Positions 31,480 to 59,302 of a DNA stretch of 64,000 nt are shown one piece after another. How positions within the stretch are numbered: position 1 is the first letter of the stretch; each line of letters starts with the position of its first letter. Source of the stretch: Porodaedalea pini (taxonomy: Eukaryota > Basidiomycota > Agaricomycetes > Hymenochaetales > Hymenochaetaceae); the NCBI GenBank assembly GCA_002794775.1, contig NBAY01000024.1:186001-250000 (forward strand). Reading direction: 5' to 3'. The position numbers and the translations under genes were made by a program. The notes beneath the pieces were generated by a model. It was not told the origin of the DNA. It ran no database searches and saw only the letters and a program-made list of their open reading frames with translations.

Positions 31480-31480
31480 T

Positions 31481-37379: not shown

Positions 37380-37477
37380 CACGCTACTTCAGGAGTGGAT
37401 CATCATGACAGCAGATACATGTTTGAATGATCAAGCCATAGTAAGACCCTTGTGGAACAAGATTGCTCCATACCTTA

Positions 37478-39476
37478 CAGCCATTTTCATAAGTCCTGCG
37501 ACACATGCATTTCACGTGAAATGAGCCGCGTCTGAGCCAAAACGTCGAAAAATAGAATAAATGTTGATTTTCTCTGTAAATTCTGCGCAGTACCTGCTCA
37601 TTAAGTACTCAAAAAATAGGCATGGTTCTCAGGAGCAGAAATATGTAAAATAGGGAGCAATACATTGACTGTGTAGGTGGGTGGAGATCAAACAAGTGCA
37701 GCCAGTCTGTTCTCTCATACATTTCCACTGAGATTCAAAAATTATGGCTCCCCTACATCTACCTATAAAATTCTTTCCCATGACTGTAAATTAAGTATAT
37801 GACTATACCAACAGCTCCTGCAAGTCTGAAGCCAATCCATGCAGTATTCATGGTGCAGCAGCAAGGTTTGTGTTCCACTTCGAGCTCTTTCCACCTTCCT
37901 CTTCTCACAACAGGTCTTGCAGCACGGGTGAGAAGACCGTTAAGATTATGATTCTTTTTGTGTAATTATCGGACACATAAAAGCCATCTTCCCTGCAAGT
38001 TTCCTGTCCATTTGCTTTGTGCTTTGACTGCTATGCTCAAATTTCTGTGCATACTACCAACACCTGTGAGCACGTGAGCACATGTTAGCCAAGCCACCAC
38101 CATGCAAACACAAAAGCCAACACTCTACTTCCTCCTCCTCTCAGGTCATTCCATGATGGTTTCAGGCAAGGCACTCTCAGATGATGCAAGACACATCATA
38201 TTCAGACTGTATCAGTCATGACTCTTCACCATGCATGACCTGGCCAGGGTAATAGATATCCATCGAGCAACAATCCACCAAACTGTTGCTTAACACGAGC
38301 GCATGGGGCATTTATGACAGGAGGGCACGAGGACCGGAAGACCAAGGTTGCTTGATTATGCGGATACACAGGTGAGTGCATTTTTTGAATTCTAATGACT
38401 CACTGCAGCTAACTAAACTATAGTATCTCTTGAGCACGATAGAGCATTGCAAGGACCAGTACTTAGACAAGGTGAGGGAGGAGCTGGAAAGGGTAACAGG
38501 CAAGAAGGTTTCGGACACTACAGTATGGAGGTCTCTGCGCTGGGCTGGGTTCACTCTGAAGATGGTGCGGTGATGCTTATGGCTTCGCATCAGCAAACTT
38601 ACTCTGCTCAAGATATCAAAAAGGGCACTTGAATGCAGCGAGTCCGCTCAGCTCCAGTACACATTGAGAATGGGATCTCAATATGAGGCAGAACAGCTCG
38701 TCTTTGTTGACAAGAGTGCATGCGACTGACGTACCTTCTTGAGGAAGAAAGCATGGGCTTTGCAGGGTTATCAGGCATGTCGGAAAGTGATCTTTACACA
38801 GGGAAAAAGGTGCAATGCTTACCTTTATGACTGCAGATCTGACTGCTTGCCTCTTCTAGGTATTCGATCTTGCCCACAATCACTTCGACTGGCATGCTTG
38901 ACTGTACAATACTGGAAGGATCCTTCAATGCCACCTCCTTCTCTGCATTTATCAGGGATCTCTTGGACCACATGCAACCTTGGCCAGCCCAAAACTCTGT
39001 CATGGTGATGGACAACTGCACAATCCACAAGTCACTGGAAATCTGTGAACTCATTGAGTCAAGGTCCATCTATTTTGACCTGTTGTGCTGCGACACAGGG
39101 CTCTTACTGATCTGACTCCGCACAGGGGCATGAAGCTGGAATTTCTCCCCACATATTCTCCAGACTTCAACCTGATCAAGCTGGCATTCTCTCTGCTGAA
39201 ATCTCAACTTCATCAGGTCAAATTCAGTGATGAGGAAATGGACGCTTTGGTATTCGTGAAGCTTTACGGTGAAACCATGTCTATCAGTGCTGCAGACTGT
39301 CACGCTTTCTATCATCATTATGGTTATCTCTGTTAGTGTCGGGTTTCTTCATCGAGTGGATACAGGCTTCCTTGTCACTGTCTCAACTGGTCCAACAACG
39401 TAATATATTCTGTCTATATGATGTATGCATAACTACTGTTCCTTGATGTGAGAAACATCCTCCTGCACATATCAAA
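37478..39476 (+). repeat. Left 2-kb inverted arm
   Basis: Outer terminus CAGCCATTTTC at 37478. It contains the palindrome CATTTCACGTGAAATG (37508-37523) and a dead transposase gene. A diverged third copy of its first 366 bp starts at 63635. Confidence 0.85.
38156..39336 (+). pseudogene. Dead Tc1/mariner (DDE_3) transposase, left arm
   Basis: From ATG 38156 (MVSGKALSDDARHIIFRLYQ) the frame-corrected protein shows an N-terminal helix-turn-helix (LARVIDIHRATIH), GRPRLLDYADTQ, VSDTTVWRSLRWAGFTLK, LVFVDKSACD (first catalytic Asp), VMDNCTIHKS (second) and LEFLPTYSPDFNLIKLAFS, where Asn-Leu-Ile replaces the usual NPIE, so the last acidic residue is lost. Stops occur at the codon after LYQS (TGA), near 38290, before TFLRKKAW and elsewhere, with short introns or frameshifts between blocks. 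The right-arm copy carries the same lesions, so the arms were duplicated after inactivation, or homogenised. Confidence 0.8.
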
Positions 39477-41233
39477 TGATACAATTGAGTAACCCAATGC
39501 TTGCCTCCACTTGAGCATCAATAACCATCTTCTCGAGCCTTCCAAATTCTAAGTAAGCCAAGTCATCCAAGCGTTTAATATCATTGGCCTCGAAAACAGG
39601 TAGCAGAGACCTGTATTGGTAGTCATCGCAGCCTCTCTCCATGTCATCATGCAATGATTCAATCCAATTCTGAACAGAAGGGTAATTGCATGGCCTGTGC
39701 TCAGCTACTACTTGGTTATGCATTTCGTAGTGCTGGGCAATGACCGGCTGGTTGAAAGGTTGCATTGGCACTACAGTTGCCACTGTTCTGGCTGTCACAG
39801 GAGCACTGTTGGGGAAGGATGTTGTAGGCCCAGTTGCTATGTCAGAGCCAGTTCCTGCGCTGGCATTGTCAGCTGCTTTCTACTGCTTGTCCAATACTTT
39901 CAGTTGCCCTGGTACTTTGTCCACTTTGACTCCGGGAGTATTCTTATACTGGACAAAGTATGCTTTTAGTCTGGTGAGATTGCACTTTGTCAATGGACTC
40001 ACAATCAGTTTTGCATGTTCAACAAGATGTTTGTTGGAATACATAAGATGGTCTTTTGACCCTCTTATTTTACCACAGAGCCTGCCATCGTGTTTATCGC
40101 ATTTGAACGCTGCTGTGATTTGCACCATAATCCGTTCGAGTGCAGCATCGTAAGCTTCCTTAGCACCGGTGACCCCTGAAGGAGTCGCATTCATTCTAGT
40201 CGCACTTTGCTGTTTATTGCTGTTCCCATTGTTCCTGCATGTATTCTTCACTGCATGTCAGGAACCACTTTATACATCAAATACTATAGACGAACCTGAT
40301 TACTGAGATTCCAAATGACAATTCTGGGGTTTTCATTACCTTGTTTCTTCTTCTTTTCAGCTGCTTGATGCCTGTGAACTCATTTGAACAGCGCATCCAA
40401 CTGGTCTTGTGTATCCAAATATTCTGGTTCAAGCTTTGTCCCAGACTTCACAGACCAGCAAGCTGTGTAACCAAGTTGGTCGAATGTAGAATGACCCTGG
40501 GTGATTGAAACCGCTTCATTGATCAAATCAGCCAGTGACATCTTGGAGTTGATCTTCATGTCTCACATGCCAGTACCGTCATGAATTTTTACCATGACTT
40601 CCAGTTCGGGCTTTTTCTCTGCAGCAGGTGTTGATGTGATCCATCCATAAGCTTTTGCATGTCCAAGGGAGGGAGTATTCCAGTCCACATACTTGCCAGC
40701 TATACTTTTCTTAGCCACAGCCTTAGGCAACAATGAATGGAGGTTTTGTACCATCATCAAGATGGAAAGAATGCTCATCAGGCTTGTCAGGAGAGTCAGG
40801 AATTTCATCGAAGGCCGATCTGTCATCGTCAAAACCCTGCATTTCATTCATAGTGTCGTTCAAGCCAAGTCCTGAAGCCCAAATGACGTCCGCAATGGAT
40901 ATATCCCTCTGATCTTCAGGCAAATGCTCCTGTTCAACTGTATCCTTGTCATTGCCCTTCTTGCGTGGCTATGGGCATGAAAACTGGTCAGAGAGAGCAT
41001 TTGCATCAAATTTCACAACTCACAGTTTGGCAGGTCAGCTTTGCTGTTGTAGCATATTTCTTCCCACTCAATTTCGACTGCTTTTTTGCGGGAGTTTTGG
41101 GGACCTGATTGGGGACTTCATTTTTCCTGGGGCGACCAACAGGGTGTTTCTTCATCTGCACAGCTAATTCTGCAGCTAGTTCTTCGCCATCTTTGAGTTT
41201 TTTGGACTTCTTTCTGACACGTTGAGGTGGCAT
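39472..41233 (-). pseudogene. Cargo gene 1: AT-hook / SAM-like unknown protein, with stops
   Basis: Four exons on the minus strand: 41024-41233 (MPPQRVRKKSKKLKDGEELA, AT-hook-like VGRPRKN), 40752-40968 (LPEDQRDISIADVIWASG), 40340-40721 (KYVDWNTPSLGHAKAYGW, SLADLINEAVSITQGHSTFD), and 39472-40245. The last ends YPSVQNWIESLHDDMERGCD then FEANDIKRLDDLAYLEFGRL, which resembles a SAM-like domain. Introns are GT-AG and 36-94 bp. Two TGA codons in exon 3 (after HDGTGM and after LDALFK, probably former CGA) and a TAG in exon 4 (after VLDKQ) break it. The stop codon lies inside the last bases of the left arm. It may be a DNA-binding accessory protein of the transposon; I do not know the family. Confidence 0.5.
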
Positions 41234-41555
41234 CGTGGGGTCAGGAAAAGAAACACAATTTGATTTCGCTTAGAGCATCGGATATTTTTGCTTACCGAAT
41301 ATTTTGGTACCTAAGCCTCCCGAAAGATGTCGGTGACCTCTACCTCCTTCATGACTATTGCTTTCATGCCGACTGAGCCATTGTGGACCAAGGTTGAAGG
41401 TAGGGAACTGGCTATCCCAATGCAGCAAGAATACAAAAGGAGGGTTCAGGGCATCAAAATGCACCAGTCTTATCTTTATCTCTCATCCTTCTCCTCCCAT
41501 CCCCATCAGTCTTGCTCTCCCACCTCATCGCTCACCCCTATAAGTACCCATTGCT
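41234..41555. promoter_or_regulatory. Probable bidirectional promoter between the cargo genes
   Basis: About 320 bp between the ATG of cargo gene 1 and the likely start region of cargo gene 2. CCTATAAGTACCC (near 41538) is a TATA-like element just ahead of an ATG at 41556. Confidence 0.35.
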
Positions 41556-42914
41556 ATGGAAGGACAAGCTGGATGGCATCCTATGGATCCTTCCAGTGAC
41601 ATAGTCATGGTTAATGGTATGGAATAGATTGCCACGTTCTAAGTCTTTGGTGGCTTACAAACAGGCATTTTGTGTAGCACCCAGTGAAGTTCATGATCAT
41701 GAAGACACCATGGAAGACTCTGAGCAGTTGCAAGAGGTGCCATCTGGTAAGCATATGTCTTCCCTGGTAAGTTCCATGGGCCCTTCTGACATGACATCAG
41801 ATGAAGTTTCTTCTGAAGGACCTGCAGAGAATGATTCAAAAGGAAAGGGAAAGGAAGTGGCTCAAGAGAGTTCAGGGGAGGAATCTAGTTGTAGTAGCCA
41901 TAAGTACTATTTATACAATTGCTGCGGGATCGTCCTGATGCATCTGTGCACTATTTTTCAGCATCCGAAAGTGCAATGCTAAAGAAGCAGCTCGCTCAAG
42001 TGAAGGCATCACAGTCTATGACAAAGTTGTGGTAATTGTGGAGGCAGCTGTTGCTAAGCATGGTCAGATTGAGGAAAAGTCAAAGTGGCGTAAAAAAACA
42101 TCTTCACGCCAGAAAAGATTATGATTTTCTCTTGGCTAGGATAACCCAACTCGAGTCACAAATCTACACAAGCTCAGCCACCGTGCTTCAAACTGTTCAA
42201 GATAATGCTGCAGCCAATGAGGCATGTTCTTCGGAGGCCCAGGTTGGCCTTCTTATTGTCACAGATCGGGTTAATACGTTGGAGGAGAAAAGTGAACAAA
42301 GCGAAATCAATGCACATTGAGTAGAAGATGAAATACGTGGTGTACTTAGTCTTCATATGGATGCTATTCTTGGGGTAAAGCTCCTTCTCTAGTATCACTC
42401 TACTTGATTCTCACATTCTGATTTAGGAGCCTGAAGTGGCGGATAAGTTGCACCTTCGAAAATTAATTGAGGAAGGAAAGATTATACTCTTTATGGGCTT
42501 CAGTGTTGTGGAGCGTGTCCTGCAGATTCGCTACTGCTCGGGAAACACTTCAAATAATGAGGATGTCTGCAAGCCTAAAAGGATTCATTATTTCATCCCG
42601 ATCGACCACTCTCATATTCAGCAAAACACAGTGTATGACCCATGGTCATCCAAACAGGTCTTGAGGGGCCTTGTGTGGTGCGCTCAAACCCCAAAGGCAG
42701 GCCCTGGCATGCCCTTTGAGGCATTCAAATCAATTGCCAATATAACGAAAGACTACGCATTCGATCTCGGGCAACTCTATCTGAACTATGACAGAGAGAA
42801 GGTAATCCAAAACTTGCACGACTTGGTAGTTGCTTTTATGCGTGCTCATGAATGGCTGAGCTTCTGGGAGATGAACACTTTGCTTTCCCTTGCCATGAGG
42901 GTGGAACAGGCAGG
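41556..42914 (+). pseudogene. Cargo gene 2, 5' part (unknown protein), interrupted by Gypsy element 2
   Basis: Coding-like blocks in order: an acidic/Ser-rich region (41614-41905: EDTMEDSEQLQEVPSGKHMS, GKGKEVAQESSGEESS), a coiled-coil segment (42100-42320: ARITQLESQIYTSSATVLQT, LLIVTDRVNTLEEKSEQSEI), and a longer globular frame (42436-42914: MADKLHLRKLIEEGKIILFM, then FIPIDHSHIQQNTVYDPWSS and VVAFMRAHEWLSFWEMNTLL). The frame is cut by the LTR at VEQAG. Introns and several stops separate the blocks. No known domain is recognised. Confidence 0.45.
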
Positions 42915-43340
42915 TGTTAGGACTTGAACTTTCACCCTGTCTTTTATTTTCCCTTTTACCATTTCTTTTCTTTTAACCGCTCTTTTTCATTATATTTAAT
43001 CATCTTTTCAGTCATTTCCCACACTCCCTCCACATGACCTTCATTCGTTCCATTCCGTTCGTTTATGTAACTTTAGATAATATAGTCCCACGGTCGCCGC
43101 TGTATAAGGTCTCAGGAATCGCATGAACTCCTTGTTCTGCTTTTCCTCTTACCTCCGCGACGACCTAGGTGAGACTCGTCCCCCCTGTATTAGTTTAGAC
43201 TTGTATTAATCCTCTTACCTCCGCGACGACCTAGCCTGAGTAAAACGTGTCCCGAGTCCCCGCTCGAGTATAACACGTCCCAGACGACAGTCAGCAGAGA
43301 CCTGCCCAGTCTGAGTCGTCTCCCAGACTCCCGCCTAACA
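42915..43340 (+). repeat. 5' LTR of Gypsy element 2
   Basis: TGTATAAGG TATA-like element, then GTTCTGCTTTT at 43134-43144. The matching primer site AAAAGCAGAAC is at 43342-43352. Confidence 0.92.
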
Positions 43341-44050
43341 TAAAAGCAGAACTGCACCCAGGCTCATCCCCAGCGTACGTCGTCGCTGCCGACTCGCCTT
43401 CACTCGGTCTAGAGGAGCACTCCCCTCGACGGACTTGACATGTAAACCCCATAAACGACAACCCTCAACCCTGCCCGGACGTTTTAGAACGTTTGTGTAT
43501 TACGTAAACATTCCAACCGACTTTTCCCGGCCCTGGCTCTCAGAATTAGCCTCTGGTGGAGCACGCACCTGACGTGGACGTGGGTAACCAGACGAGTACA
43601 AACTTTGACTACAATCTCATTTGTGGTCTCGCTCGGATCCTACCGCCTCGTCATCAACTTCGCCAATGAACCCGTTCAACGTTGGCGTAACCCCGGATCA
43701 AACGCACAACCGATCCCCGTCCCTCCGCCAACGTCAAGATAGATCTTACCGACGAACAGTGACGGGCCCTTCCTGCATCAGCCCGTTGGGATCCAGACCG
43801 ACCAGGCTACGTCGCAACCAACAATAGCAGCGTCACTCACGACATCTGGTGGAGCGAAGTCCGGTGCAGCTGGTATTCGTCAGACGAATGAGGAAGGAGA
43901 GCCAGGTGGCCCCCAGCCGCTCCATCATCGCCTGCGCCATCGATGTCTACGGTCACCCTACCACCAACCCCAGGTCCTTACCACAAAACAAACAGAGACC
44001 CCTCACCACCGACTCCCCCGGAACCTTCGACACCCGCACCCGAACCCGCG

Positions 44051-45133
44051 ATGTCAGCAGAAGGTTTTAGCCAACATCAGATGGTGCAAATCGCGGCCAT
44101 CGTTGCAAACGCCTTTGCCCATCAGGCAAATAATGCCCCAGCACCAGTCGTGGCAGCTAACCCCCCAACCCCCAACATCGACGTCGCCCGGCCACGTGAA
44201 TTCACTGGCGGCGATGACTACCTAGACTTCAAGCACGAGGTCCTCCTCTTCGTCTCAGCCAACCCAAACAGATACCCCACGTCGGAAAGCAAAATCTACG
44301 TCACGCTCTCCTACTTGAAGGGCGGTAATGCAGCAACGTGGGTGCAGAATTACGTAGAGGAATCAACGACAGCCGGCATCGTAACCTTCACAGACAGCTG
44401 GACGAGATTCCAAGAGCACCTGGACGCCTCGTTCGACAATCCGAACCGGAAGGAAAAGGCGCTGGTGAAATTCTGGACTAAGGTTCAGAAGGACCTTACC
44501 GCCGATGAGTTCTTCCAGGATCTCGACATTGTCATCACAAGAGCCGGTTTAATGGACGACAGCATCATCTGTGATCGACTGAAGCGGGCGATGAACATCA
44601 AAGTGGTGAGAGGGGTACTACGGTCGACGCCAGTCCCGACAACGTATGAAGACTGGAAAAAGAAAGCGATCGAAATTGATCAGGGCGAGCAACAGATTCG
44701 TGCCATCCAATGAGGCCGCACCTTCCCATCCCCTCCACGCCCACAGCAACAACATGGACCCCCAGCTCGTCGCCAGGTGGTGGCCCCCCATGTTGACAAA
44801 CGCGATGCAACAGGCGTCACGTTCGGAGGAGCTGGCCAGCCAATGGACGTCTCCATGAATGAGGCGCAACGCCAACACGCGTGCTGGATATGTGGCCAGC
44901 TCGGTCATTTCAAGGACGCGTGCCCACAAGGGAAGACAATTGTGCAGTGTATGCTGCAGATGATGGCACCTGGCGAACGTCGCCTCCTCACCGACGAACT
45001 AGGGGCGATGAAGGAATCGGCATTCGAGGAAGTTGTAGACACTCGGAGGTCGACTGTGGAGGACTATGTGGAGGAGGAAGGTGATGACGAAGAGGTCGTC
45101 AACTCGCAGGGTTTTGCGAGTGGTCAGGCGTAG
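44051..45133 (+). pseudogene. gag: gag of Gypsy element 2
   Basis: Starts MSAEGFSQHQMVQIAAIVAN. The capsid core has FTGGDDYLDFKHEVLLFVSA, the zinc knuckle is CWICGQLGHFKDAC, and the frame ends SGQA at 45133. One TGA (44711) stands where element 1 has a CGA arginine (IQRGR). Otherwise it is continuous. Confidence 0.88.
45109..45115 (+). promoter_or_regulatory. GGGTTTT slippery heptamer in a hairpin at the gag/pol overlap (element 2)
   Basis: G GGT TTT fits X XXY YYZ in the gag frame. ACTCGCA before and TGCGAGT after it pair perfectly, placing the heptamer in the loop. Gag stops 15 bases further on; pol is open in the -1 frame. Suggests -1 ribosomal frameshifting; untested. Confidence 0.45.
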
Positions 45134-48100
45134 CCACCAGGGCGACTGGCCAAGAAGTTCCAAGGGTTTCAAGTTCGGATCTGTTAAAATATAGTCAACC
45201 GCCTGTACGATATCTAGATGCAAACAGCGTCGATGACTTTTCTGACTACGAAAACCCTACTGGTGTGAATGAAGAAGACGTCGAAGAGAAGTTGTTCATG
45301 AGGGGAACTGGCGGACGCCAGCTGGACCTCCTCCTGAACGTTGGACACAGCGTAGCAGGTGAGACGAGAGAGGTGGATGCGCATGCCCTCGTGGATTCGG
45401 GATGCACAGGATCATGCATCGACATGGGGTTCATTGAGCGATACGGATTGGAGACCAAATGATACATTCGGCCCCTCGCAGTGCTCAATGCTGATGGCAC
45501 GCACAATGAAGCCGGCTTGATCGAAGAATACGTCGACGTCGAGCTTATGATCGGGCACCACAGGGAGAGGATTGTCCTTGTGGTGACATCGCTGGCGTCG
45601 TCAAACATCTTCCTTGGTTACGATTGGCTTCGACGTCACAACCCAGAGGTCGACTGGAAGGCGGGTTTGATTGAATTCACCCGTTGCCCGGAGGAGTGCA
45701 CAATCGAGAAGGAGGACATGAAGGAGACGAGGAGGGTGAGAGAGATGCGAATGGACAAAGCGTCCTGGCCCACATACCTCAATGACTACGCCGACGTATT
45801 CTCGGAGAAGGGGTTCGAGAAGTTGCCTGAACACCGACCATGGGACCACGTCATCAATCTGAAACCCGACTTCAAGCCCAGTGACTGCAAGATCTACCCG
45901 CTCACACCAACAGAGCAGCAGTCGCTCAAGGACTTCCTAGACGAGAACTTGAAGTCTGGTCGCATCCGAAGATCTATATCACCTATGGCGTCGCCTTTCT
46001 TCTTCATCAAAAAGGCCGACAAATTGCTACGCCCGATCCAGGATTACTGTAAGCTCAACGACGGTACGATCAAGAACAAGTATCCCCTCCCTCTCATCGA
46101 CGAACTCATTGACAAGGTCAAGAAAGCGAAGTACATCACTAAGCTTGACCTTCGCTGGGGATACTACAACGTCCAGATCCGTGAAGGCGATGAGTGGAAG
46201 GCAGCATTTCGCACAAATATGGGCCTCTTTGAACCGATGGTAATGTTCTTTGGTCTTTGCAACGCACCGGCGACGTTCCAAGCTTTTGTCAACCACATCT
46301 TCAAAGGACTGATCTACGACAACCTGATCATCGTCTACCTCGACGACATACTGATTCTCTCGCAAACTCTCGAGGAACATATCGAGACGTCGAGACGCAT
46401 CCTTCAGATCCTGCGAGAGAACGGCTTATACCTGAAACCGGAGAAGTGCGAGTTCGATGCCAAAGTGGTGAAGTACCTTGGCCACATCATCGGCAATGGC
46501 GAGATCAAAGCGGACCCGGCAAAGACAGAAGCAATCGCAGACTGGCCCGTCCCACAAAACGTCAAACAGCTGCAACAATTCCTCGGCATGGGCAACTGGC
46601 TGCGACGGTTCATCAAGGACTACAGCAAGGTAGTCCATCCACTGACGTCGCTGATGGGCAAGAAGGACTGGGTATGGGAGACCGAACAGCAGGAGGCGTT
46701 CAAGGAGTTGAGACGACGTCTCTGCTCACCTCCAGTCCTGGCCATCGCGAATGATGAGGGCCCTTTCCGCGTCGAAGCGGACTCATCAAACTTCGCTCTT
46801 GGAGGAGTGCTGTTGCAAAAGCAGGAAGGCAAGTGGAGGGTAGTCGCCTACAGGTCGGAAGCGCTCCTACCGGTGGAACGAAACTACAAGATCTATGACA
46901 AGGAGATGCTCGCGATCGTTTCGGCACTCAAGGAGTGGAGGCAATACCTCCTCGGCGCCCGTCATCCCATCGAGATCTGGTCCGATCACGCTAACCTTAC
47001 CTACTTCAGGTCGGCACAAAAGCTAAGCTATCGACAAGCTCGCTGGCGGACAGAGCTCGAAGAATTCGACTTCCACCTCGAACACAAGTCAGGGAAGACG
47101 ATGGGTAAGGCGGACTTACTGTTGCACAAGGTGGGCTATGATGAGGGCAAGGATGACAATGACGATGTCGTGTTCATCAAGGACAAGTGGCTGAATCATG
47201 GGGTGGTGAGAACGTCGCATGATGAGGTGTTGGACAGAGTGGGTGAAGCGCAGAGAGCGCAACACGAGTTGGAGAGGCCGACGGGAATGACAGAGGTCAA
47301 CGGGTTGTGGCGCATGAAAGGCAAGGTGTACGTGCCATCATCAATGAAGGAGGCCGTATTGCGGGAATGTCACGACTCGGTTCTGGCGGGACACCCAGGA
47401 GCGTCAAAAACGGTGGAGCTCGTCTGTCGAGACTTCTGGTGGACGTCAATGTTCTCCGACGTCTGAGCGTATGTCCGAGGGTGTAATCGCTGTCAGCGAA
47501 CAAAGGCTCTGAGAGCATCGAGATCAAGGCCACTCCACCCAAACGCAGTCCCAGAAGGCCCCTGGGTAAACGTCACGGTCGACCTCATCGGAGAGCTCCC
47601 GGACTCCAAGGGACATAACGCGATCTGCGTCTTCGTTGATAGGTTCTCGAAACAGATGCACGTGATCCCAATGACGATGAAGTTGTCGGCGGAAGGCATG
47701 GCCCAGCTGTACCGCGACCACGTCTTCCACCTCCACGGCTTACCAAAAAAGATCATCCATGACCGAGGCACGCAGTTCGACGCTTTGATGATGAAGGAGC
47801 TGTACAAACTCCTGCACATCGAAGGCAACCCGTCCACGGCGTATCACCCACAGACGGATGGTCAAACGGAACACGTTAACCAAGAGCTCGAACAGTATCT
47901 TCGACTCTTTGTCAACCATCGTCAATCGGACTGGAAGGACTGGCTCCCCCTCGCAGAGTTCACATACAACAACCGCGAACACTCGGCGATGAAAATGTCC
48001 CCCTTCTATATGAACACAGGACGTCACCCCTTAAGCTTTGACACAACACGAACCTCGTCTACCAACATGTCGGCGGAAGAATTCGTGAAACACATCAAAG

Positions 48101-48730: not shown

Positions 48731-49156
48731 TGTTAGGACTTGAACTTTCACCCTGTCTTTTATTTTCCCTTTTACCATTTCTTTTCTTTTAACCGCTCTT
48801 TTTCATTATATTTAATCATCTTTTCAGTCATTTCCCACACTCCCTCCACATGACCTTCATTCGTTCCATTCCGTTCGTTTATGTAACTTTAGATAATATA
48901 GTCCCACAGTTGCCACTGTATAAGGTCTCAGGAATCGCATGAACTCCTTGTTCTGCTTTTCCTCTTACCTCCGCGACGACCTAGGTGAGACTCATCACCC
49001 CTGTATTAGTTTAGACTTGTATTAATCCTCTTACCTCCGCGACGACCTAGCCTGAGTAAAACGTGTCCCGAGTCCCCGCTCGAGTATAACACGTCCCAGA
49101 CGACAGTCAGCAGAGACCTGCCCAGTCCGAGTCGTCTCCCGGACTCCCACCTAACA
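48731..49156 (+). repeat. 3' LTR of Gypsy element 2
   Basis: 426 bp, partner of 42915-43340. Preceded by a run of nine G (polypurine tract). Confidence 0.92.
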
Positions 49157-50640: not shown

Positions 50641-50775
50641 TCATGATGATGACCTCGAGGCATCCAAGGTGGTCACTGGAGTGGTGGTAATGAGGAGGGA
50701 CTCCAGCATGGATCAAATCGGTCTGAACAATCAGACACATGCTCTCACATAGCCTCAAATCCTTTTGTCTACTAT
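50641..50775. other. Downstream flank of cargo gene 2, cut by element 3
   Basis: No coding features. The sequence resumes after element 3 at 57030. Confidence 0.4.
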
Positions 50776-51198
50776 TGTTAGGCGGGAGTCCGGGAGACGA
50801 CTCGGACTGGGCAGGCCTCGGCTGACTGTTGTCTGGGACGTGCTATACTCGAGCGTAGACTCGGGACACGCTTACTCAGGCTAGGTCGACGCGGAGGTAA
50901 GAGGATTAATACAAGACTAGACTAATACAAGGGGGACGAGTCTCACCTAGGTCGACGCGGAGGTAAGAGGAAAAGCAGAACAAGGAGTTCATGCGATTCC
51001 TGAGACCTTATATAGCGATGACCGTGAGACTATATTACCTAACATTACATAACGAGTGGGAATGGAACGAATGAAGGTCGTGTAGAGGGAGTGTGGGAAG
51101 TGATTGGAAAGATGATTAAAGATAATGAAAAGGAGCAATTAACAGAAACGAAAAAGGAAAAGGGGAAATAAAGAAAAGGGGAAGTTCGAGTCCTGACA
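50776..51198 (-). repeat. 3' LTR of Gypsy element 3
   Basis: TGTTAGGCGGGAG...TCCTGACA as read on the plus strand. Adjacent internal C-run (GGGGGGG on the minus strand) is the polypurine tract. Confidence 0.93.
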
Positions 51199-54100
51199 TT
51201 ACCCCCCCTCAAGGTTGGGCGTCCCGACCAACCAAGATCGCGGTCGTCTGGCTCGGTGTCGACGAAGAGCGGACGGAGTCGTGAGCGAGGGATATCGAGT
51301 TTGCGGGGAGCACCGGGGTGTTTGAGGTAGAATTCAGCAATTGCCTCCTTTGCGTTCTCGCCGAAGTCCGTCTCCGGTTGCCAGGTCGGTTCGTTGTACC
51401 CGACCCACTTGACGAGGTACTGTAGTTTACCTCGGTGCAGACGTGAGTCAATGACCTCTTCAACCTCGTATTCCTCTTCGTTGTCGACGATTTCCGGTGG
51501 TGGCGGTGGCGGTAGCTTCTGGCTCTCAAACGACGGTTCAACGGCGGGTTTCAACAGGGCTTCGTTGAAGACAGGGTGGACCTTTTTCCATCGCTTCGGG
51601 AGTTTGAGCTTGTACGCGCTCGCTCCTACCTTGTCGACGACGTCAAAGGGGCCGTACCATTTGTCTGCAAGTTTCTTTGTCGGCGAGTCCGTACTGATGT
51701 TTCGCCCGTCAAGGAAGACCTTGTCGCCAGCCTTGTATTCCACCGATGCTCCTGCCATCCGGTCATGGTAGCGTTTCATGTCTTCTGCTGCCTTGACCAG
51801 ATTGTCCCTTGCCGTGCGATGGGTCTCCTTGATGTGCTTCGCGAATTCTTCTGCCGACATGTTGGTAGAGGAAGTTCGTACGGCGTCGAAGCTCCTAGGG
51901 TGACGTCCAGTGTTCGCGTAGAAGGGTGACATCTTTGTCGCCGAGTGTTCTCGGTTGTTGTAGGCGAACTCTGCGAGAGGGAGCCAGTCTTTCCAGTCTG
52001 ACTGCCGATGGTCAACGAAGAGCCGGAGGTACTGTTCGAGCTCTTGGTTGACGCGTTCCGTCTGACCGTCCGTTTGCGGGTGATACGCCGTCGACGGGTT
52101 GCCTTCGATGTGTAGGAGTTTGTACAGCTCCCTCATCATTGATGCGTCAAACTGCGTGCCTCGGTCATGGATGATCTTTTTTGGCAAGCCATGGAGACGG
52201 AAGACGTGGTCGCGGTACAGTTGAGCCATGCCTTCCGCTGACAATTTTGTCGTCGTCGGGATCGCGTGCATCTGTTTCGAGAACCTATCGACGAAAACGC
52301 AGATTGCGTTGTGCCCCTTGGAGTCCGGGAGTTCTCCGATGAGGTCGACCGTGACAATTTCCCAGGGACCTTCAGGGACCGCGTTTGGATGAAGTGGCCT
52401 CGATCTTGATGCCCTCAGAGCCTTCGTTCGTTGGCAGCGGTCACATCCTCGGACGTATGCTCGGACATCGGAGAATATCGACGCCCACCAGAAGTCTCGA
52501 CGTACCAGTTCGACCGTCTTCGACGATCCCGGATGTCCTGCCAGGGTCGAATCGTGGCACTCCCTCAACACCGCTTCCTTCATCGTCGACGGCACGTACA
52601 CCTTGCCTTTCATTCGCCACAACCCGTCGACTTCTACCATATTCGTCGGCCTTTCCGACTCGTCTTGTCCCCTCTGCGCTTCACCCACTCGTTCCAACAC
52701 TTCATCCCGCGACGTCCTCACTATTCCACGATTCAACCACTTTTCCTTGATGAAGACGATGCCGTCGTTGTCATCCTGGCCCTTGTCGTAACCTGCCTTG
52801 CGCGATAATAGGTCCGCCTTGCCCATCGTCTTCCCCGACTTGTGTTCGAGGTGGAAGTCAAACTCTTCGAGTTCGGTTCGCCAGCGGGCTTGACGGTAGC
52901 TCAGCTTCTGCGCTGACCTGAAGTAGGTGAGGTTAGCGTGGTCGGACCAGATTTCGATCGTGTGGCGAGCGCCGAGGAGGTATTGTCGCCATTCCTTGAG
53001 CGCCGAAACGATCGCGAGCATCTCCTTGTCGTAGATCTCGTAGTTTCGTTCAGCGGGTAGGAGCGCTTCTGACCTATAGGCAATCACCCTCCACTTCCCT
53101 TCCTGTTTTTGCAACAACACGCCGCCGAGCGCAAAGTTTGACGAGTCCGCTTCTACGCGGAAAGGACCCTCGTCGTTGGCAATGGCTAGGACTGGAGGTG
53201 AGCAGAGACGTCGTCTCAGCTCCTCGAACGCTTCCTGCTGTTCGGTCTCCCATACCCAGTCCTTCTTGCCCGTTAACGACGTCAGCGGATGGACCACCTT
53301 ACTGTAGTCCTTGATGAACCGTCGTAGCCAGTTACCCATGCCGAGGAATTGTTGTAGCTGTTTCAGGTTTCGTGGGACCGGCCAGTTCGCAATCGCCTCC
53401 GTCTTTGCTGGGTCAGCCTTGATCTCGCCATTACCGATGATGTGGCCGAGGTATTTGACGACCTTGGCGTCAAATTCGCACTTCTCCGGCTTCAGGTACA
53501 GGCCATTCTCTCGCAGGATCTGAAGGACGCGCCTCGACGTGTCTATATGTTCCTCAATGGTCTCCGAGAGGATCAATATGTCGTCGAGGTATACGATGAT
53601 CAGGTTAGCGTAAATCAGTTCCTTGAAGATGTGATTGACAAAAGCCTGGAACGTTGCCGGGGCGTTGCAGAGACCAAAGAACATGACCGTCGGTTCGAAG
53701 AGGCCCATGTTTGTGCGAAACGCTGCTTTCCATTCGTCACCCTCGCGGATCCGGATATTGTAGTACCCCCAGCGAAGGTCAAGCTTAGTGATGTACTTCG
53801 CTTTCTTGACCTTGTCGACGAGTTCGTCAATGAGAGGGAGGGGATACTTGTTCTTGATCGTACCGTCATTGAGCTTACGGTAATCCTGGATCGGGCGTAG
53901 CGATTTGTCGGCCTTCTTAATGAAAAAGAAGGGCGACGCCATGGGCGATATCGACCGTCGAATGCGACCCGACTTCAAGTTTTCATCGAGGAAGTCCTTG
54001 AGTGACTGTTGCTCTGTTGGCGTGAGCGGGTAGATTTTACAGTCACTTGGTTTGAAGTCGGGCTTCAAGTCGATGACGTGGTCCCACGGTCGGTGTTCCG

Positions 54101-54848
54101 GTAGCTTTTCGAAGCCTTTTTCGCTAAAGACGTCGGCGTAGTCGTTGAGGTATGCGGGCCAGGACTCCTTGTCCATTCGCACCTCTCTCACCCTCCTTGT
54201 CTCCTCTGCTGCTCTCCACACCCTCTGCATACCTTCCTCGTCGTCCTTCTCTACCACGCATTCACCTGGACAGCGAGTAAAGTCGAGTGTCCCCGTCTTC
54301 CAGTTGACCTCTGGATTGTGTCGTCGAAGCCAGTCGTACCCCAGGAAGATGTTAGAAGACGCCAATGAGGTTACTGCCAGGACGATCTGTTCCTTATGAT
54401 GACCGATCGTGAGTTCAACGTCAACGTATTCCTCGATCAACCCAGCTTCGTTGTGCGTGCCGTCGGCATTGAGCACCGCAAGGGGTCGGATATACCGCTT
54501 CGTCTCTAGCCCATACCGTTCGACGAACCTCACGTCGATGCACGATCCTGTACATCCCGAGTCCACGAGTGCGTGAGCGTCTACCTCCCTCACTTCACCT
54601 TTCACACTGTGTCCGACGTTCAGGAGAAGGTCCAGCTGGCGTCCGCCAGTTCCTCTCATGAACAACTGCTCGTACCCTTCACTTCTTTTCACACCGGTGG
54701 GGACTTCATACTCCGGAAAACCATCGACGTCGTTCGCATCTACGTGTTGTACAGACGGTTGGTTATATTTTAACGAGTCCGGATTCAAAGTCCCTTGTTC
54801 TTCCCGGTCAGTCGCCCCGATGGCTACGCCTGACCACTCGCAAAACCC
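51045..54848 (-). CDS. pol: pol polyprotein of Gypsy element 3 (intact frame)
   Basis: About 1,250 residues without a stop. Domains from the N terminus: aspartic protease DSGCTGS (about residue 80); RT (RPIQDYRKLNDG, LRWGYYNIRI, FFGLCNAPATFQ, YLDDILIL); RNase H (VEADSSNFALGG, EMLAIVSALKEWR); integrase with HDSTLAGHPG...CDRCQRTKA zinc finger and DDE core (VDLIGELPDSKG, IHDRGTQFD, TDGQTERVNQELE); and a C-terminal chromodomain (YEVEEVIDSRLHRGKLQYLV, KWVGYNEPTWQPETD) that would target insertion to marked chromatin. There is no ATG at the head: the frame opens inside the gag end, just after a TGA, and its first methionine lies shortly before the protease. The frame runs through the polypurine tract into the LTR, so the natural stop may have been lost. 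Expression probably uses -1 frameshifting from gag. Confidence 0.92.
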   Translation of the reverse strand, partial: GFCEWSGVAIGATDREEQGTLNPDSLKYNQPSVQHVDANDVDGFPEYEVPTGVKRSEGYEQLFMRGTGGRQLDLLLNVGHSVKGEVREVDAHALVDSGCTGSCIDVRFVERYGLETKRYIRPLAVLNADGTHNEAGLIEEYVDVELTIGHHKEQIVLAVTSLASSNIFLGYDWLRRHNPEVNWKTGTLDFTRCPGECVVEKDDEEGMQRVWRAAEETRRVREVRMDKESWPAYLNDYADVFSEKGFEKLPEHRPWDHVIDLKPDFKPSDCKIYPLTPTEQQSLKDFLDENLKSGRIRRSISPMASPFFFIKKADKSLRPIQDYRKLNDGTIKNKYPLPLIDELVDKVKKAKYITKLDLRWGYYNIRIREGDEWKAAFRTNMGLFEPTVMFFGLCNAPATFQAFVNHIFKELIYANLIIVYLDDILILSETIEEHIDTSRRVLQILRENGLYLKPEKCEFDAKVVKYLGHIIGNGEIKADPAKTEAIANWPVPRNLKQLQQFLGMGNWLRRFIKDYSKVVHPLTSLTGKKDWVWETEQQEAFEELRRRLCSPPVLAIANDEGPFRVEADSSNFALGGVLLQKQEGKWRVIAYRSEALLPAERNYEIYDKEMLAIVSALKEWRQYLLGARHTIEIWSDHANLTYFRSAQKLSYRQARWRTELEEFDFHLEHKSGKTMGKADLLSRKAGYDKGQDDNDGIVFIKEKWLNRGIVRTSRDEVLERVGEAQRGQDESERPTNMVEVDGLWRMKGKVYVPSTMKEAVLRECHDSTLAGHPGSSKTVELVRRDFWWASIFSDVRAYVRGCDRCQRTKALRASRSRPLHPNAVPEGPWEIVTVDLIGELPDSKGHNAICVFVDRFSKQMHAIPTTTKLSAEGMAQLYRDHVFRLHGLPKKIIHDRGTQFDASMMRELYKLLHIEGNPSTAYHPQTDGQTERVNQELEQYLRLFVDHRQSDWKDWLPLAEFAYNNREHSATKMSPFYANTGRHPRSFDAVRTSSTNMSAEEFAKHIKETHRTARDNLVKAAEDMKRYHDRMAGASVEYKAGDKVFLDGRNISTDSPTKKLADKWYGPFDVVDKVGASAYKLKLPKRWKKVHPVFNEALLKPAVEPSFESQKLPPPPPPEIVDNEEEYEVEEVIDSRLHRGKLQYLVKWVGYNEPTWQPETDFGENAKEAIAEFYLKHPGAPRKLDIPRSRLRPLFVDTEPDDRDLGWSGRPTLRGGNVRTRTSPFLYFPFSFFVSVNCSFSLSLIIFPITSHTPSTRPSFVPFPLVM

Positions 54849-55902
54849 TGCGAGTCAACGACCTCTTCGTCATTCTCTCCTTCCTCCACATAGTCCTCCA
54901 CCGTCGACCTCCGAGTGTCTACGACTTCCTCGAAGGCTGACTCCTTCATCGCTCCGAGCTCGTCTGCGAGGATGCGGCGTTCGCCAGGGGCCATCAGTTC
55001 CAGCATACGCTGGATAATCGGTTTCCCCTGCGGGCACCTGTCCTTGAAGTGGCCTTCTTGACCACAGATCCAGCAAGCTCTTCTGCGACGTGCCTCGTTC
55101 ATAGAGACGTCCATCGGTTGTCCGATACCTCCGAACGTGACGCCGGTCGCGTCGCGTTTGTCGACGTGCGGGGTCGCAACTTGGCGCCGAGCGGGGGTGC
55201 CTGTTGTTGTTGGCGAGGTTGCGGTATGAACGGGCGGCCTCGTTGAATCGCGCGGATCTGCTGTTCTCCGCGATCGATCTCGATAGCTTTGTTCTTCCAC
55301 GCCTCATACGTTGTCGGTACGGGCGTCGACCTCAGCACGCCGCGGACTACCTCGATGTTCATTGCTCGCTTGAGGCGGTCGCAGATAACGCTGTCGTCTT
55401 TCAGTTCCGCCCGCTTGATGATGACGTCAAGTTGTTGGAAGAACTTATCCGCGGTGAGGTCCTTCTGAACCTTCTCCCGGAAATCCTTCAGTGCAGCTTC
55501 CTTTCGGTTCGGATCGTCGAACGAGGCGTCGAGTCGTTCCTGGAATCTTTCCCAGCTGTCCGTGAAGGTAACGATTCCCGCCGTTGTCGACTCCTCGACG
55601 TAGTTCTGCGCCCACGTTGCCGCATTACCACCCTTCAGGTAGGAGAGAGCTACGTAGATCTTACTCTCCGACGTAGGGTATCGGCTTGGGTTCGCGGACA
55701 CGAAAAGAAGGACTTCGCGTCTGAAGTCAAGGTAATCGTCGCCACCAGTGAATTCACGTGGTCGGGCGACGTCTATGTTGGGGGTCGGGGGGTTAGCGGC
55801 CGCGACCGGTGCTGGGGCGTTGTTCGCCTGATGGGCGAAGGCATTCGCAACGATGGCCGCGATCTGCGCCATTTGCTGTTGGCTGAAACCTTCTGCTGAC
55901 AT
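54824..55902 (-). pseudogene. gag: gag of Gypsy element 3, one frameshift
   Basis: ATG at 55902 (MSAEGFSQQQMAQIAAIVAN). Capsid FTGGDDYLDFRREVLLFVSA and TPVPTTYEAWKNKAIEIDRG. The frame then breaks near 55190, where a C appears to be missing in a CCCC run compared with elements 1 and 2. The other frame continues ARRQVATPHVDKRDATGVTF, zinc knuckle CWICGQEGHFKDRC and SGQA at 54824. A single-base lesion, therefore recent. Confidence 0.87.
54842..54848 (-). promoter_or_regulatory. GGGTTTT slippery heptamer in a hairpin (element 3)
   Basis: Same heptamer and 7-bp ACTCGCA/TGCGAGT stem as in element 2, just before the gag stop at 54824-54826. In element 1 the heptamer is mutated to GGATTTT. Confidence 0.45.
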
Positions 55903-56594
55903 CGCGGGTTTGGGTGTTGAAGGTTCTGGGGGAGTCGGCGGTGAGGGATCTCTGTTGGTCTCGCGGTAAGGACCCGGAGTCGGTGGTAGGTTAACCGTAG
56001 ATGTTGACGGTGCGGGTGACGATGGGGTAGCTGGAGGCCACCTTGCTCTCCTTCCTCGTTCGTCTGACGAATACCAGCCGTGCCGGATTTCACTCCACCA
56101 GATGTCGTGAGTGACGCCGCTGTTATTGGTCGCGACGTAGCCTGGTCGATCTGGATCCCAACGGGCTGAGGCAGGAAGGGCCCGTCGCTGTTCGTCGGTG
56201 AGATCTATCTTGACGTTGGCGGTGGGACAGGGATCGGTTGCGTGTTCGATCCGGGGTTACGCCAACGTTGAGCGGGTTCGTCAGCGAAGTTGATGACGAG
56301 GCGGTAGGATCCGAGTGAGATTACAAACGAGATTGTCGTCGAAGTTTGGACTCGTCTGGTTACCCACGTCCACGTTAGGTGCGTGCTCCACCAGAGGCTA
56401 ATTCGTAGAGCCAGGGTCGGGAGATGTCGGTTGATATGTTTACGTAATACACGAACGTCCGAAAACGTCCGGGCAGGGTTGAGGGTTGTCGTTCAGGGGG
56501 TTTACACGTCAAATCCGTCGAGGGGAGCGCTCCTCTAGACTGAGTGAAGGCGAGTCGACAGCGACGACGTACGCTGGGGATGAGCCTGGGTGGG

Positions 56595-56605
56595 GTTCTG
56601 CTTTT
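56595..56605 (-). promoter_or_regulatory. Self-priming primer-binding site of Gypsy element 3
   Basis: AAAAGCAGAAC on the minus strand, one base inside the 5' LTR edge. Its complement is at 56802-56812 in the LTR, downstream of the TATATAAG box. Confidence 0.7.
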
Positions 56606-56606
56606 A

Positions 56607-57029
56607 TGTTAGGCGGGAGTCCGGGAGACGACTCGGACTGGGCAGGCCTCGGCTGACTGTTGTCTGGGACGTGCTATACTCGAGCGTAGACTCGGGACAT
56701 GCTTACTCAGGCTAGGTCGACGCGGAGGTAAGAGGATTAATACAAGACTAGACTAATACAAGGGGGACGAGTCTCACCTAGGTCGACGCGGAGGTAAGAG
56801 GAAAAGCAGAACAAGGAGTTCATGCGATTCCTGAGACCTTATATAGCGATGACCGTGAGACTATATTACCTAACATTACATAACGAGTGGGAATGGAACG
56901 AATGAAGGTCGTGTAGAGGGAGTGTGGGAAGTGATTGGAAAGATGATTAAAGATAATGAAAAGGAGCAATTAACAGAAACGAAAAAGGAAAAGGGGAAAT
57001 AAAGAAAAGGGGAAGTTCGAGTCCTGACA
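56607..57029 (-). repeat. 5' LTR of Gypsy element 3
   Basis: 423 bp, one base different from the other LTR. Contains the promoter for the minus-strand transcript. Confidence 0.93.
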
Positions 57030-57301
57030 ACTATTTCCTTTTGTATTCCTCCTACTAAGTCTTCTTTCATACAGAAATACCAGGGTTTTGTATGATTAGT
57101 TGTGTAGAATGTACATTTTATTTATTCAATGATTGAAGTTTACTGCTAGAAAGTGACCATGATGATGGAGTGCGTGATGTTCTGCACCGCTCAACTCATT
57201 GTCCATCGCTACAATAGCCTTTGGGCATGGCAAGACTGCATATGGTCCAAGAGCGAAGGATGCAGAGGTCAAGACAAGTCTTGCATTACTCACTCACACT
57301 G
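57030..57301. other. Remainder of the composite's interior
   Basis: About 270 bp between element 3 and the right arm, probably downstream sequence of cargo gene 2. No coding features. Confidence 0.4.
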
Positions 57302-59300
57302 TTTGATATGCGCAGGAGGATGTTTCTCACATCAAGGAACAGTAGTTATGCATACATCATATAGACAGAATATATTACGTTGTTGGACCAGTTGAGACAG
57401 TGACAAGGAAGCCTGTATCCACTCGATGAAGAAACCCGACACTAACAGAGATAACCACAATGATGATAGAAAGCGTGACAGTCTGCAGCACTGATAGACA
57501 TGGTTTCACCGTAAAGCTTCACGAATACCAAAGCGTCCATTTCCTCATCACTGAATTTGACCTGATGAAGTTGAGATTTCAGCAGAGAGAATGCCAGCTT
57601 GATCAGGTTGAAGTCTGGAGAATATGTGGGGAGAAATTCCAGCTTCATGCCCCTGTGCGGAGTCAGATCAGTAAGAGCCCTGTGTCGCAGCACAACAGGT
57701 CAAAATAGATGGACCTTGACTCAATGAGTTCACAGATTTCCAGTGACTTGTGGATTGTGCAGTTGTCCATCACCATGACAGAGTTTTGGGCTGGCCAAGG
57801 TTGCATGTGGTCCAAGAGATCCCTGATAAATGCAGAGAAGGAGGTGGCATTGAAGGATCCTTCCAGTATTGTACAGTCAAGCATGCCAGTCGAAGTGATT
57901 GTGGGCAAGATCGAATACCTAGAAGAGGCAAGCAGTCAGATCTGCAGTCATAAAGGTAAGCATTGCACCTTTTTCCCTGTGTAAAGATCACTTTCCGACA
58001 TGCCTGATAACCCTGCAAAGCCCATGCTTTCTTCCTCAAGAAGGTACGTCAGTCGCATGCACTCTTGTCAACAAAGACGAGCTGTTCTGCCTCATATTGA
58101 GATCCCATTCTCAATGTGTACTGGAGCTGAGCGGACTCGCTGCATTCAAGTGCCCTTTTTGATATCTTGAGCAGAGTAAGTTTGCTGATGCGAAGCCATA
58201 AGCATCACCGCACCATCTTCAGAGTGAACCCAGCCCAGCGCAGAGACCTCCATACTGTAGTGTCCGAAACCTTCTTGCCTGTTACCCTTTCCAGCTCCTC
58301 CCTCACCTTGTCTAAGTACTGGTCCTTGCAATGCTCTATCGTGCTCAAGAGATACTATAGTTTAGTTAGCTGCAGTGAGTCATTAGAATTCAAAAAATGC
58401 ACTCACCTGTGTATCCGCATAATCAAGCAACCTTGGTCTTCCGGTCCTCGTGCCCTCCTGTCATAAATGCCCCATGCGCTCGTGTTAAGCAACAGTTTGG
58501 TGGATTGTTGCTCGATGGATATCTATTACCCTGGCCAGGTCATGCATGGTGAAGAGTCATGACTGATACAGTCTGAATATGATGTGTCTTGCATCATCTG
58601 AGAGTGCCTTGCCTGAAACCATCATGGAATGACCTGAGAGGAGGAGGAAGTAGAGTGTTGGCTTTTGTGTTTGCATGGTGGTGGCTTGGCTAACATGTGC
58701 TCACGTGCTCACAGGTGTTGGTAGTATGCACAGAAATTTGAGCATAGCAGTCAAAGCACAAAGCAAATGGACAGGAAACTTGCAGGGAAGATGGCTTTTA
58801 TGTGTCCGATAATTACACAAAAAGAATCATAATCTTAACGGTCTTCTCACCCGTGCTGCAAGACCTGTTGTGAGAAGAGGAAGGTGGAAAGAGCTCGAAG
58901 TGGAACACAAACCTTGCTGCTGCACCATGAATACTGCATGGATTGGCTTCAGACTTGCAGGAGCTGTTGGTATAGTCATATACTTAATTTACAGTCATGG
59001 GAAAGAATTTTATAGGTAGATGTAGGGGAGCCATAATTTTTGAATCTCAGTGGAAATGTATGAGAGAACAGACTGGCTGCACTTGTTTGATCTCCACCCA
59101 CCTACACAGTCAATGTATTGCTCCCTATTTTACATATTTCTGCTCCTGAGAACCATGCCTATTTTTTGAGTACTTAATGAGCAGGTACTGCGCAGAATTT
59201 ACAGAGAAAATCAACATTTATTCTATTTTTCGACGTTTTGGCTCAGACGCGGCTCATTTCACGTGAAATGCATGTGTCGCAGGACTTATGAAAATGGCTG
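57302..59300 (-). repeat. Right 2-kb inverted arm
   Basis: Mirror copy of 37478-39476. The outer terminus is at 59300, followed by TA. Two base differences noted, one of them a CpG transition. Confidence 0.85.
57442..58622 (-). pseudogene. Dead Tc1/mariner (DDE_3) transposase, right arm
   Basis: Same gene as 38156-39336 in opposite orientation with the same stops and frame breaks. The only coding difference noted is Cys for Tyr near the C terminus (YHHCGYLC), which matches the residue usual in this family. Confidence 0.8.
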
Positions 59301-59302
59301 TA

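What the first reader, a model, noticed from the sequence alone, without database searches (positions are those of the whole stretch)
37478..59300. A 21.8-kb composite transposon with exactly matched 1,999-bp inverted arms and two cargo genes
The arms are equal in length to the base, nearly identical, face outward with the same CAGCC terminus and have TA on both outer flanks. Neither has an inner terminus. Two independent insertions of a normal Tc1/mariner element would each show both ends, so one long-TIR element is the simpler reading. The transposase in each arm is dead with the same lesions, so movement would need a source in trans, or the arms are homogenised by gene conversion. Unknown divergent genes fill the interior; a third end copy at 63635 supports a family.
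Basis: partly seen in the sequence, partly recalled or inferred. Interest (0 to 1): 0.78.

Follow-up and report, generated by a model that had tools for sequence, protein, structure and literature searches.

The report
Two-armed fungal transposon with cargo
This is one copy of a jumping DNA element, probably from a mushroom-type fungus, that carries a whole transposase gene in each of its two mirror-image ends plus two extra genes between them, and whose two ends seem to keep overwriting each other so that they stay almost identical while the element decays.

Summary
In detail: 37478-39476 and 57302-59300 are inverted 1,999-bp arms with 2 mismatches and TA outside each. The unit is repeated: 60 of 73 inner arm ends in this 53-Mb genome form 30 convergent pairs, and 72 of 73 adjoin cargo gene A or B; the exception is the window's right arm, displaced by a retrotransposon. 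The basic element is 9.3 kb; the window copy is 21.8 kb because two LTR retrotransposons sit in it. Each arm holds a five-exon DD34E Tc1 transposase gene, broken here, open in 12 of 26 arms read. Two copies sit inside MITEs of the same family, whose empty site can be read. A second family has the same plan with a related gene B and a different gene in slot A. Arms co-evolve within elements: over 13 elements, 290 private changes are in both arms, 65 in one, and three elements have one insertion at the same base in both arms. Conversion does not slow CpG decay. A new variant of Tc1/mariner; roles of A and B are open.

The parts
37476..37477 (.). TA flanking the left end (half of the TA target duplication)
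37478..39476 (+). Left arm (long terminal inverted repeat, 1,999 bp) carrying a decayed Tc1-type transposase gene
   Evidence: 2 mismatches in 1,999 to the right arm
38153..39336 (+). Transposase gene in the left arm: five exons, GT-AG introns, 323 aa when open in other copies; 4 stops here (limits mapped from arm positions 676-1859)
   Evidence: (PF13358 in copy C148)
39475..40257 (-). Last long exon of cargo gene B (one stop in the window copy)
   Evidence: C24:225475-226257
40340..41233 (-). Earlier exons of gene B (approximate limits, mapped from copy C65; exact splice sites not settled)
41400..42914 (+). 5' part of cargo gene A (approximate start), interrupted by an LTR retrotransposon
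   Evidence: C24:228427-228918
42915..49156 (+). Nested LTR retrotransposon (Ty3 kind), target duplication GCAGG, LTRs 8 of 426 different
49157..50598 (+). 3' part of cargo gene A
   Evidence: C24:235157-236326 and 236233-236598
50776..57029 (-). Second nested LTR retrotransposon (Ty3 kind), target duplication ACTAT, LTRs 1 of 423 different
57302..59300 (-). Right arm (long terminal inverted repeat, 1,999 bp)
57442..58625 (-). Second transposase gene copy, in the right arm, with the same number of stops (4)
59301..59302 (.). TA flanking the right end
63633..64000 (+). Left part of an 853-bp MITE of the same family (ends outside the window)

Best explanation
A single DNA transposon of the Tc1 (DD34E) kind, about 9.3 kb when unbroken. 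Each of its two 2-kb terminal inverted repeats contains a complete transposase gene reading inward; between them two divergent genes, A and B, read outward. Shown by sequence: one unit, many copies, TA at both ends, insertion of the whole unit into MITEs of the same family. Inferred: transposase made from any open arm copy binds the outer ends, which are the only ends, and cuts and pastes the whole unit into TA; it also moves the MITEs, which are two arm ends joined head to head. The two arms of an element are kept alike by gene conversion between them (pattern shown, mechanism inferred). Gene B, shared by two distant families, is most likely an accessory protein of transposition; the gene in slot A was exchanged or has diverged beyond recognition. 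The window copy is an old, dead member carrying two later retrotransposons.
For: 30 convergent pairs of inner arm ends, 16 of 30 with spans of 5,378-5,494 bp. 72 of 73 inner ends adjoin gene A or B within 2.5 kb. TA at both ends in 13 of 13 elements read. The elements on C12 and C4 lie inside MITEs: the joined flanks (one TA) align in single stretches through the junction to the MITE loci listed (12 loci for C12, 11 for C4, the best of 20 given), and the joined bases read as in MITE L030. Transposase: PF13358 E 9e-31; D-83-D-34-E; splice dinucleotides kept in 26 of 26 arms; 12 of 26 arms without internal stop, 9 of these 12 with all three acids. Private changes in both arms 290, in one arm 65, over 13 elements; window 62 and 2. 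Same-site insertions in both arms on C35, C110 and C4, 100% identical where shared. CpG decay of arms like that of interiors (window 0.294 and 0.308), so the arms are not simply younger. Left-right differences at tract edges. Second family with the same plan.
Against: The protein database gave no relative of gene B and one of gene A, from an unnamed source (about 8,000 candidates scored in each, capped), so the accessory role is inference. dN/dS of gene A is 0.64-0.90 against six more diverged copies, only weakly below 1. Thirteen of 73 inner ends are unpaired. C39 has more one-arm (21) than both-arm (11) private changes. On C5a the arm difference is what the nested LTRs predict without conversion. 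C24b has an insertion in one arm only. Only 13 of 30 pairs were read in full; no reads and no second strain were available.
Confidence: 0.88

Rival explanations
1. Classical composite transposon: two separate Tc1 insertions in opposite orientation trapped host genes between them, as insertion sequences do in bacteria, and later lost their inner ends.
For: Two full transposase genes flank unrelated genes; IS630 composite transposons are mentioned in PMC9977792 (passages seen).
Against: No inner terminus in the window arms; 72 of 73 inner ends adjoin gene A or B; no two-ended single-arm element was met, in a partial list; a second family whose gene B is 26-42% identical has the same plan. As a remote origin it stays possible; as a description of today's element it fails.
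Confidence: 0.05
2. The arms are made identical by the assembler or polisher, not by the cell.
For: No reads could be inspected; sequencing method unknown; long inverted repeats are hard to assemble.
Against: Arms of different elements differ by 1.5-3.6% on average while arms of one element differ at 0-21 sites. C35 and C110 carry a full LTR element in one arm and a solo LTR at the same base in the other, which a collapse would hardly make. Family 2 shows the same: 2 of 2,266 (33 flank bases included), 3 of 1,856, 0 of 994 and 3 of 628.
Confidence: 0.05
3. Arms are homogenised only when the element moves (gap repair with template switching), not while it sits in place. (Rival to one step of the best explanation, so its odds overlap with it.)
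For: MITEs look like products of such switching (two arm ends head to head). C5a: 9 left-right differences against 2 in 417 between nested LTRs, so no conversion is needed since that insertion.
Against: In the window the nested LTRs differ at 8 of 426, so about 37 arm differences would be expected at the same rate; 2 are seen (conditional binomial P 2.9e-5; assumes equal rates, and the retrotransposon could have been carried along in a later move). Edge-clustered differences and arms as CpG-decayed as the interior point to conversion in place.
Confidence: 0.25
4. Genes A and B are passengers with no role in transposition. (Rival to one step only.)
For: No known domain in either; slot A differs between the families; weak selection signal.
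Against: Gene B sits in the same place and orientation in two families whose B proteins are only 26-42% identical. Of the distant gene B loci in the genome, five were opened and all five lie beside such a transposase.
Confidence: 0.3

Closest known systems
Tc1 (DD34E) elements of basidiomycetes, e.g. the relative in Sanghuangporus vaninii (53% identity)
   Same: DDE_3 domain, DD34E spacing, TA target, transposase of similar length.
   Different: Usual Tc1 elements have one gene between short repeats and are about 2 kb or less (recalled); here the whole gene lies inside each 2-kb repeat and two further genes are carried. The context of the Sanghuangporus gene was not seen.
TBE elements of Oxytricha (PMC4724952; passages seen)
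   Same: Tc1/mariner transposons with three genes: transposase plus two of unknown function. One accessory gene (57kD) is much less conserved between families, as slot A is here.
   Different: TBE repeats are short (78 bp in TBE1, 112 and 117 bp in TBE2.2) and lie outside the genes; target ANT, not TA; one transposase copy per element.
Sardine and Thon elements of Paramecium (PMC3408717; passages seen)
   Same: Tc1/mariner with long (500-700 bp), complex repeats and TA; solo repeats persist as short derivatives.
   Different: DD(35)E; the passages seen do not place the transposase inside the repeat and mention no A or B genes.
Galileo of Drosophila (PMC3573991; passages seen)
   Same: Long repeats that can recruit inner sequence; derivatives made of two repeats only; the authors propose that long repeats attract recombination and conversion.
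   Different: P superfamily, 7-bp duplications; longest repeats about 1.26 kb, found in copies without transposase. Here the gene is in both repeats of all 13 elements read.
Bacterial composite transposons (two insertion sequences around cargo)
   Same: Two transposase copies bracket other genes.
   Different: Each insertion sequence has both ends and can move alone (recalled); these arms have one end each.

Membership tests
Tc1/mariner superfamily, Tc1 (DD34E) group | DDE transposase with 34 residues between second D and E | tested here: met
   83 and 34 residues in copy C148; PF13358 E 9e-31
Tc1/mariner superfamily, Tc1 (DD34E) group | N-terminal helix-turn-helix DNA-binding region | tested here: met
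   PF13592 25.1 bits (cut-off 25), a narrow pass; HTH_32 and HTH_Tnp_Tc3_2 matched below their cut-offs
Tc1/mariner superfamily, Tc1 (DD34E) group | TA target duplicated on insertion | tested here: met
   TA at both ends in 13 of 13 elements; empty site with one TA read in MITEs for two
Tc1/mariner superfamily, Tc1 (DD34E) group | Terminal inverted repeats | tested here: met
   13 of 13 elements read
Tc1/mariner superfamily, Tc1 (DD34E) group | Small element with a single gene outside the repeats (typical, not defining; recalled) | tested here: not met
   9.3 kb, transposase inside both repeats, two more genes
IS-type composite transposon | Each flanking copy has both ends and can move alone | tested here: not met
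   no inner terminus in the window arms; 72 of 73 inner ends adjoin cargo
Foldback / long-TIR elements | Long inverted repeats making up much of the element | tested here: met
   2 x 2 kb of 9.3 kb; MITEs almost wholly repeat
TBE-like multi-gene Tc1 elements | Homologous accessory genes (22kD, 57kD) | not tested
   TBE sequences were not at hand; genes A and B have no Pfam match

The most novel reading that the evidence does not exclude
A previously undescribed, long-lived lineage of eukaryotic Tc1 transposons whose stable form is two-armed: a full transposase gene in each inverted repeat is an inherited body plan older than the split of two families (transposases 42-70% identical by segment, gene B 26-42%), and ongoing conversion between the arms is what keeps the two ends matched and mobile. 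Gene B would be a conserved transposition partner and slot A exchangeable. The bolder idea that conversion repairs the transposase against CpG decay was tested and not supported.
Probability: 0.5. Interest if true: 0.75.

Novelty: new variant of a known kind. Interest (0 to 1): 0.62.

Why it matters
Eukaryotic Tc1 transposons are usually thought of as one gene between two short ends. Here two families share a plan in which the gene is inside both ends, so ends and gene evolve as a pair. The system makes two open questions directly testable: how long inverted repeats of transposons stay identical (dozens of natural replicates, some dated by nested retrotransposons, with insertions copied from arm to arm), and what extra genes do for a Tc1 transposase. 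It also shows that annotation which cuts such an element into its arms would hide the unit.

Tried and rejected
Two independent Tc1 insertions: rejected by the pair census. Two-ended progenitor: none met, but only about 100 of 661 termini are listed, so a rare one could be missed; the listed end pairs on C6 (5.6 kb apart) and C7 (1.3 kb) were read and are neighbouring or nested MITEs without cargo or a transposase gene (one 44-residue match at E 0.005 in the C7 stretch). Gene A and B homologs: one hit and none (candidate lists capped); Pfam none. Gene A of family 1 against the slot-A gene of family 2: no similarity by tblastn (one copy) or profile comparison (shallow profiles). Structure of the gene A relative P0001, folded without an alignment: mean pLDDT 38, so no fold search was made. 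Codon-position test among copies of one burst: no signal; pairwise dN/dS 0.64-0.90 against six diverged copies, 0.29 and 0.53 against two close ones, inconclusive. Conversion as repair: CpG decay lower in arms in 8 of 13, P 0.45, not supported; other sites are less changed in arms in 10 of 13 (P 0.02, few sites). Naming the host: not achieved; basidiomycete is inferred from transposase relatives. A first splicing of the transposase was off by one base and was put right. Literature: ten searches, of which listings and starts of abstracts were seen (20 of 55 listed); no listed entry describes a Tc1 element with a transposase gene in each repeat. Most subscription papers are not in that library.
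Full report
WHAT WAS CHECKED. The window is G000:C24:186001-250000, part of a 53.27-Mb genome in 201 contigs. The arms 37478-39476 (+) and 57302-59300 (-) are each 1,999 bp and differ at 2 positions; TA lies directly outside both. Similarity stops abruptly at the inner ends, and the inverted terminus is absent there (best match 22-23 mismatches of 40). This is far beyond chance.

WHAT FILLS THE INTERIOR. Most of it came later than the element. Two LTR retrotransposons lie at 42915-49156 and 50776-57029 (minus), each with a 5-bp target duplication. Reverse transcriptase, RNase H and integrase zinc-binding domains were found in both, integrase core and chromo domains in the second; 'Ty3 kind' is my reading of these. 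A third such element sits outside, 96 bp left of the transposon (31053-37379). Without the two nested ones 9,317 bp remain, the length of undisturbed copies elsewhere (C65 and C7 about 9.31 kb, C148 and C26 9.36 kb).

IT IS ONE REPEATED UNIT. The outer end occurs 661 times with up to 3 mismatches, its reversed control 0 times. The inner arm end occurs 73 times (38 plus, 35 minus), so most outer ends must belong to shorter relatives. Sixty of the 73 inner ends form 30 convergent pairs, 16 of them 5,378-5,494 bp apart, the rest 5,868 bp to 39.6 kb. Gene A or gene B hits lie within 2.5 kb on the inner side of 72 of 73 ends; the exception is the window's right arm, displaced by a nested retrotransposon. 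In 29 of 30 pairs one side has A and the other B; the 30th is the window copy. Thirteen elements were read in full; all 13 have TA at both ends. On C12 and C4 the element lies inside a MITE at the same inner TA. With the element left out and one TA kept, the flanks align in single stretches through the junction to the MITEs listed (12 loci for C12 over about 860 bases, 11 for C4 over about 620; best of 20 loci given; 4-12 gap openings per alignment, not placed), and the joined bases read as in MITE L030. That is a direct record of the whole unit inserting into TA.

THE SHORT RELATIVES. Of 20 loci fetched around listed termini, 17 hold at least one head-to-head pair of arm ends and three hold fragments. 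The four printed are 841-853 bp, made of arm positions 1 to about 408 joined to 448 to 1 or similar. Two end pairs of odd spacing on C6 and C7 turned out to be MITEs too.

THE TRANSPOSASE. Each arm carries five exons with GT-AG introns, the dinucleotides kept in 26 of 26 arms; spliced, 323 residues with D-83-D-34-E. It matches PF13358 (E 9e-31) and a winged helix-turn-helix just above cut-off. The best-scoring named relatives are Tc1-like proteins of basidiomycetes: Sanghuangporus vaninii 53%, Tricholomella constricta 47% (597 hits, 120 listed). In the window both arms have 4 stops and the third acid is replaced. In the family 12 of 26 arms have no internal stop, and 9 of these 12 keep all three catalytic acids. 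So the window copy is dead, but the family has or recently had its own transposase.

THE CARGO. Genes A and B start near the middle and read outward. Gene A has a long open exon of about 660 residues with a basic C-terminus; gene B has several exons and an AT-hook-like motif (GRPRK; recalled, no call). In copy C65 the frame of gene B ends inside the arm. No Pfam match was found. Protein searches gave one hit for A (P0001, 92%, unnamed source) and none for B; both scored a capped list of about 8,000 candidates.

A SECOND FAMILY. Gene B has distant relatives (25-38% identity) at other places of the same genome. Five such loci were opened (C97, C54, C100, C72, C28); all five have a Tc1 transposase beside gene B. 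Inverted arms were seen in four; C54 keeps one arm in the stretch read. A different gene lies in slot A in the same four. Arms are about 2.24 kb, and the terminus reads CTGCCC(C/T)TTTCAGAAGTATTGTCACAC after TA. One undisturbed copy is C28:226434-235160, 8,727 bp; its arms differ at 2 of 2,266 positions, 33 of which are flank. Other arm pairs differ at 3 of 1,856, 0 of 994 and 3 of 628, against about 7% between elements. This terminus occurs 298 times, among the first places listed often as pairs about 1.08 kb apart. Between the families transposase segments are 42-70% identical (the lowest span introns) and gene B segments 26-42%. The plan is therefore older than that split.

CONCERTED EVOLUTION OF THE ARMS. 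Interiors of the other 12 copies are 96.1-99.2% identical to each other, the window copy 93.9-94.5% to them. Of 1,055 C-to-T changes (either strand) in interiors, 968 are in CpG, as expected of methylated repeats. Against the majority of the other elements, private changes shared by both arms number 290 and one-arm changes 65, summed over 13 elements; the window has 62 and 2, C39 at the other extreme 11 and 21. Arms have decayed as much as interiors at CpG sites (window 0.294 and 0.308; lower in arms in 8 of 13, P 0.45): they are as old as the interior, yet decayed together. Three elements have the same insertion at the same base in both arms: C4 933 bp in both; C35 a full 6,253-bp LTR element in one and a 419-bp solo LTR in the other; C110 6,240 and 412 bp; identical where shared. 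C24b has a 987-bp insertion in one arm only. Left-right differences sit at edges: on C12 all 6 lie in positions 23-53; 8 of 13 elements have one at 1989-1997; on C39 they are spread. In the window the nested LTRs differ at 8 of 426, which predicts about 37 arm differences; 2 are seen (conditional binomial P 2.9e-5; equal rates assumed). C12 gives 5 of 420 against 6 of 1,999; C5a 2 of 417 against 9 of 1,999, the last needing no conversion. In-place gene conversion is the best reading, homogenisation at transposition the main rival.

HOW IT PROBABLY WORKS. Shown: architecture, whole-unit insertion into TA, open transposase copies, arm co-evolution. Inferred: transposase from any open arm pairs the two outer ends of full elements and MITEs and moves them by cut and paste; the inverted arms, normally 5.3 kb apart, convert each other; MITEs arise by joining of two arm ends during faulty repair. 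Gene B is a likely partner of the transposase because it stays with it in two families; slot A is variable, much as the 57kD gene is the least conserved of the three genes of TBE elements (PMC4724952, passages).

WHAT IS KNOWN. Long repeats, multi-gene Tc1 elements and repeat-only derivatives are each known (Sardine and Thon, PMC3408717; TBE; Galileo, PMC3573991; passages seen in each). None of those passages describes a transposase gene inside both repeats of a Tc1 element, and no entry listed by the ten paper searches does; that library lacks most subscription papers. Verdict: a new variant of a known superfamily, well supported as a unit, with the roles of genes A and B open.

Noticed in passing
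L062 to L064 (G000:C28:225601-236000): The undisturbed family-2 element is flanked on both sides by about 350 bp that are inverted copies of each other (97.7%), including part of an LTR.
   Followed up: partly
arm position about 128; C12, C4, L038, L049: Elements or MITEs are nested in MITEs at the same TA near arm position 128 at several loci, as if this TA were a preferred target.
   Followed up: partly
window 31053-37379: A further LTR element of the Ty3 kind with 5-bp duplication CACGC and LTRs 2 of 427 different, ending 96 bp before the transposon.
   Followed up: partly
window 4998-5671 and 7536-7714: Tandem array with 32-bp period and a related inverted copy about 2 kb away.
   Followed up: no
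window 23390-23972 and 6776-7200: Two palindromic stretches (81% and 72% self-complementary), possibly other foldback or MITE copies.
   Followed up: no
window 59350-59384: A 35-bp repeat right of the element that also borders the family-2 element on C28, on both sides in inverted order.
   Followed up: partly
L011 (C148), right flank: A family-2 type terminus lies a few bases from the right end of this family-1 element, so the two families insert close to each other.
   Followed up: no
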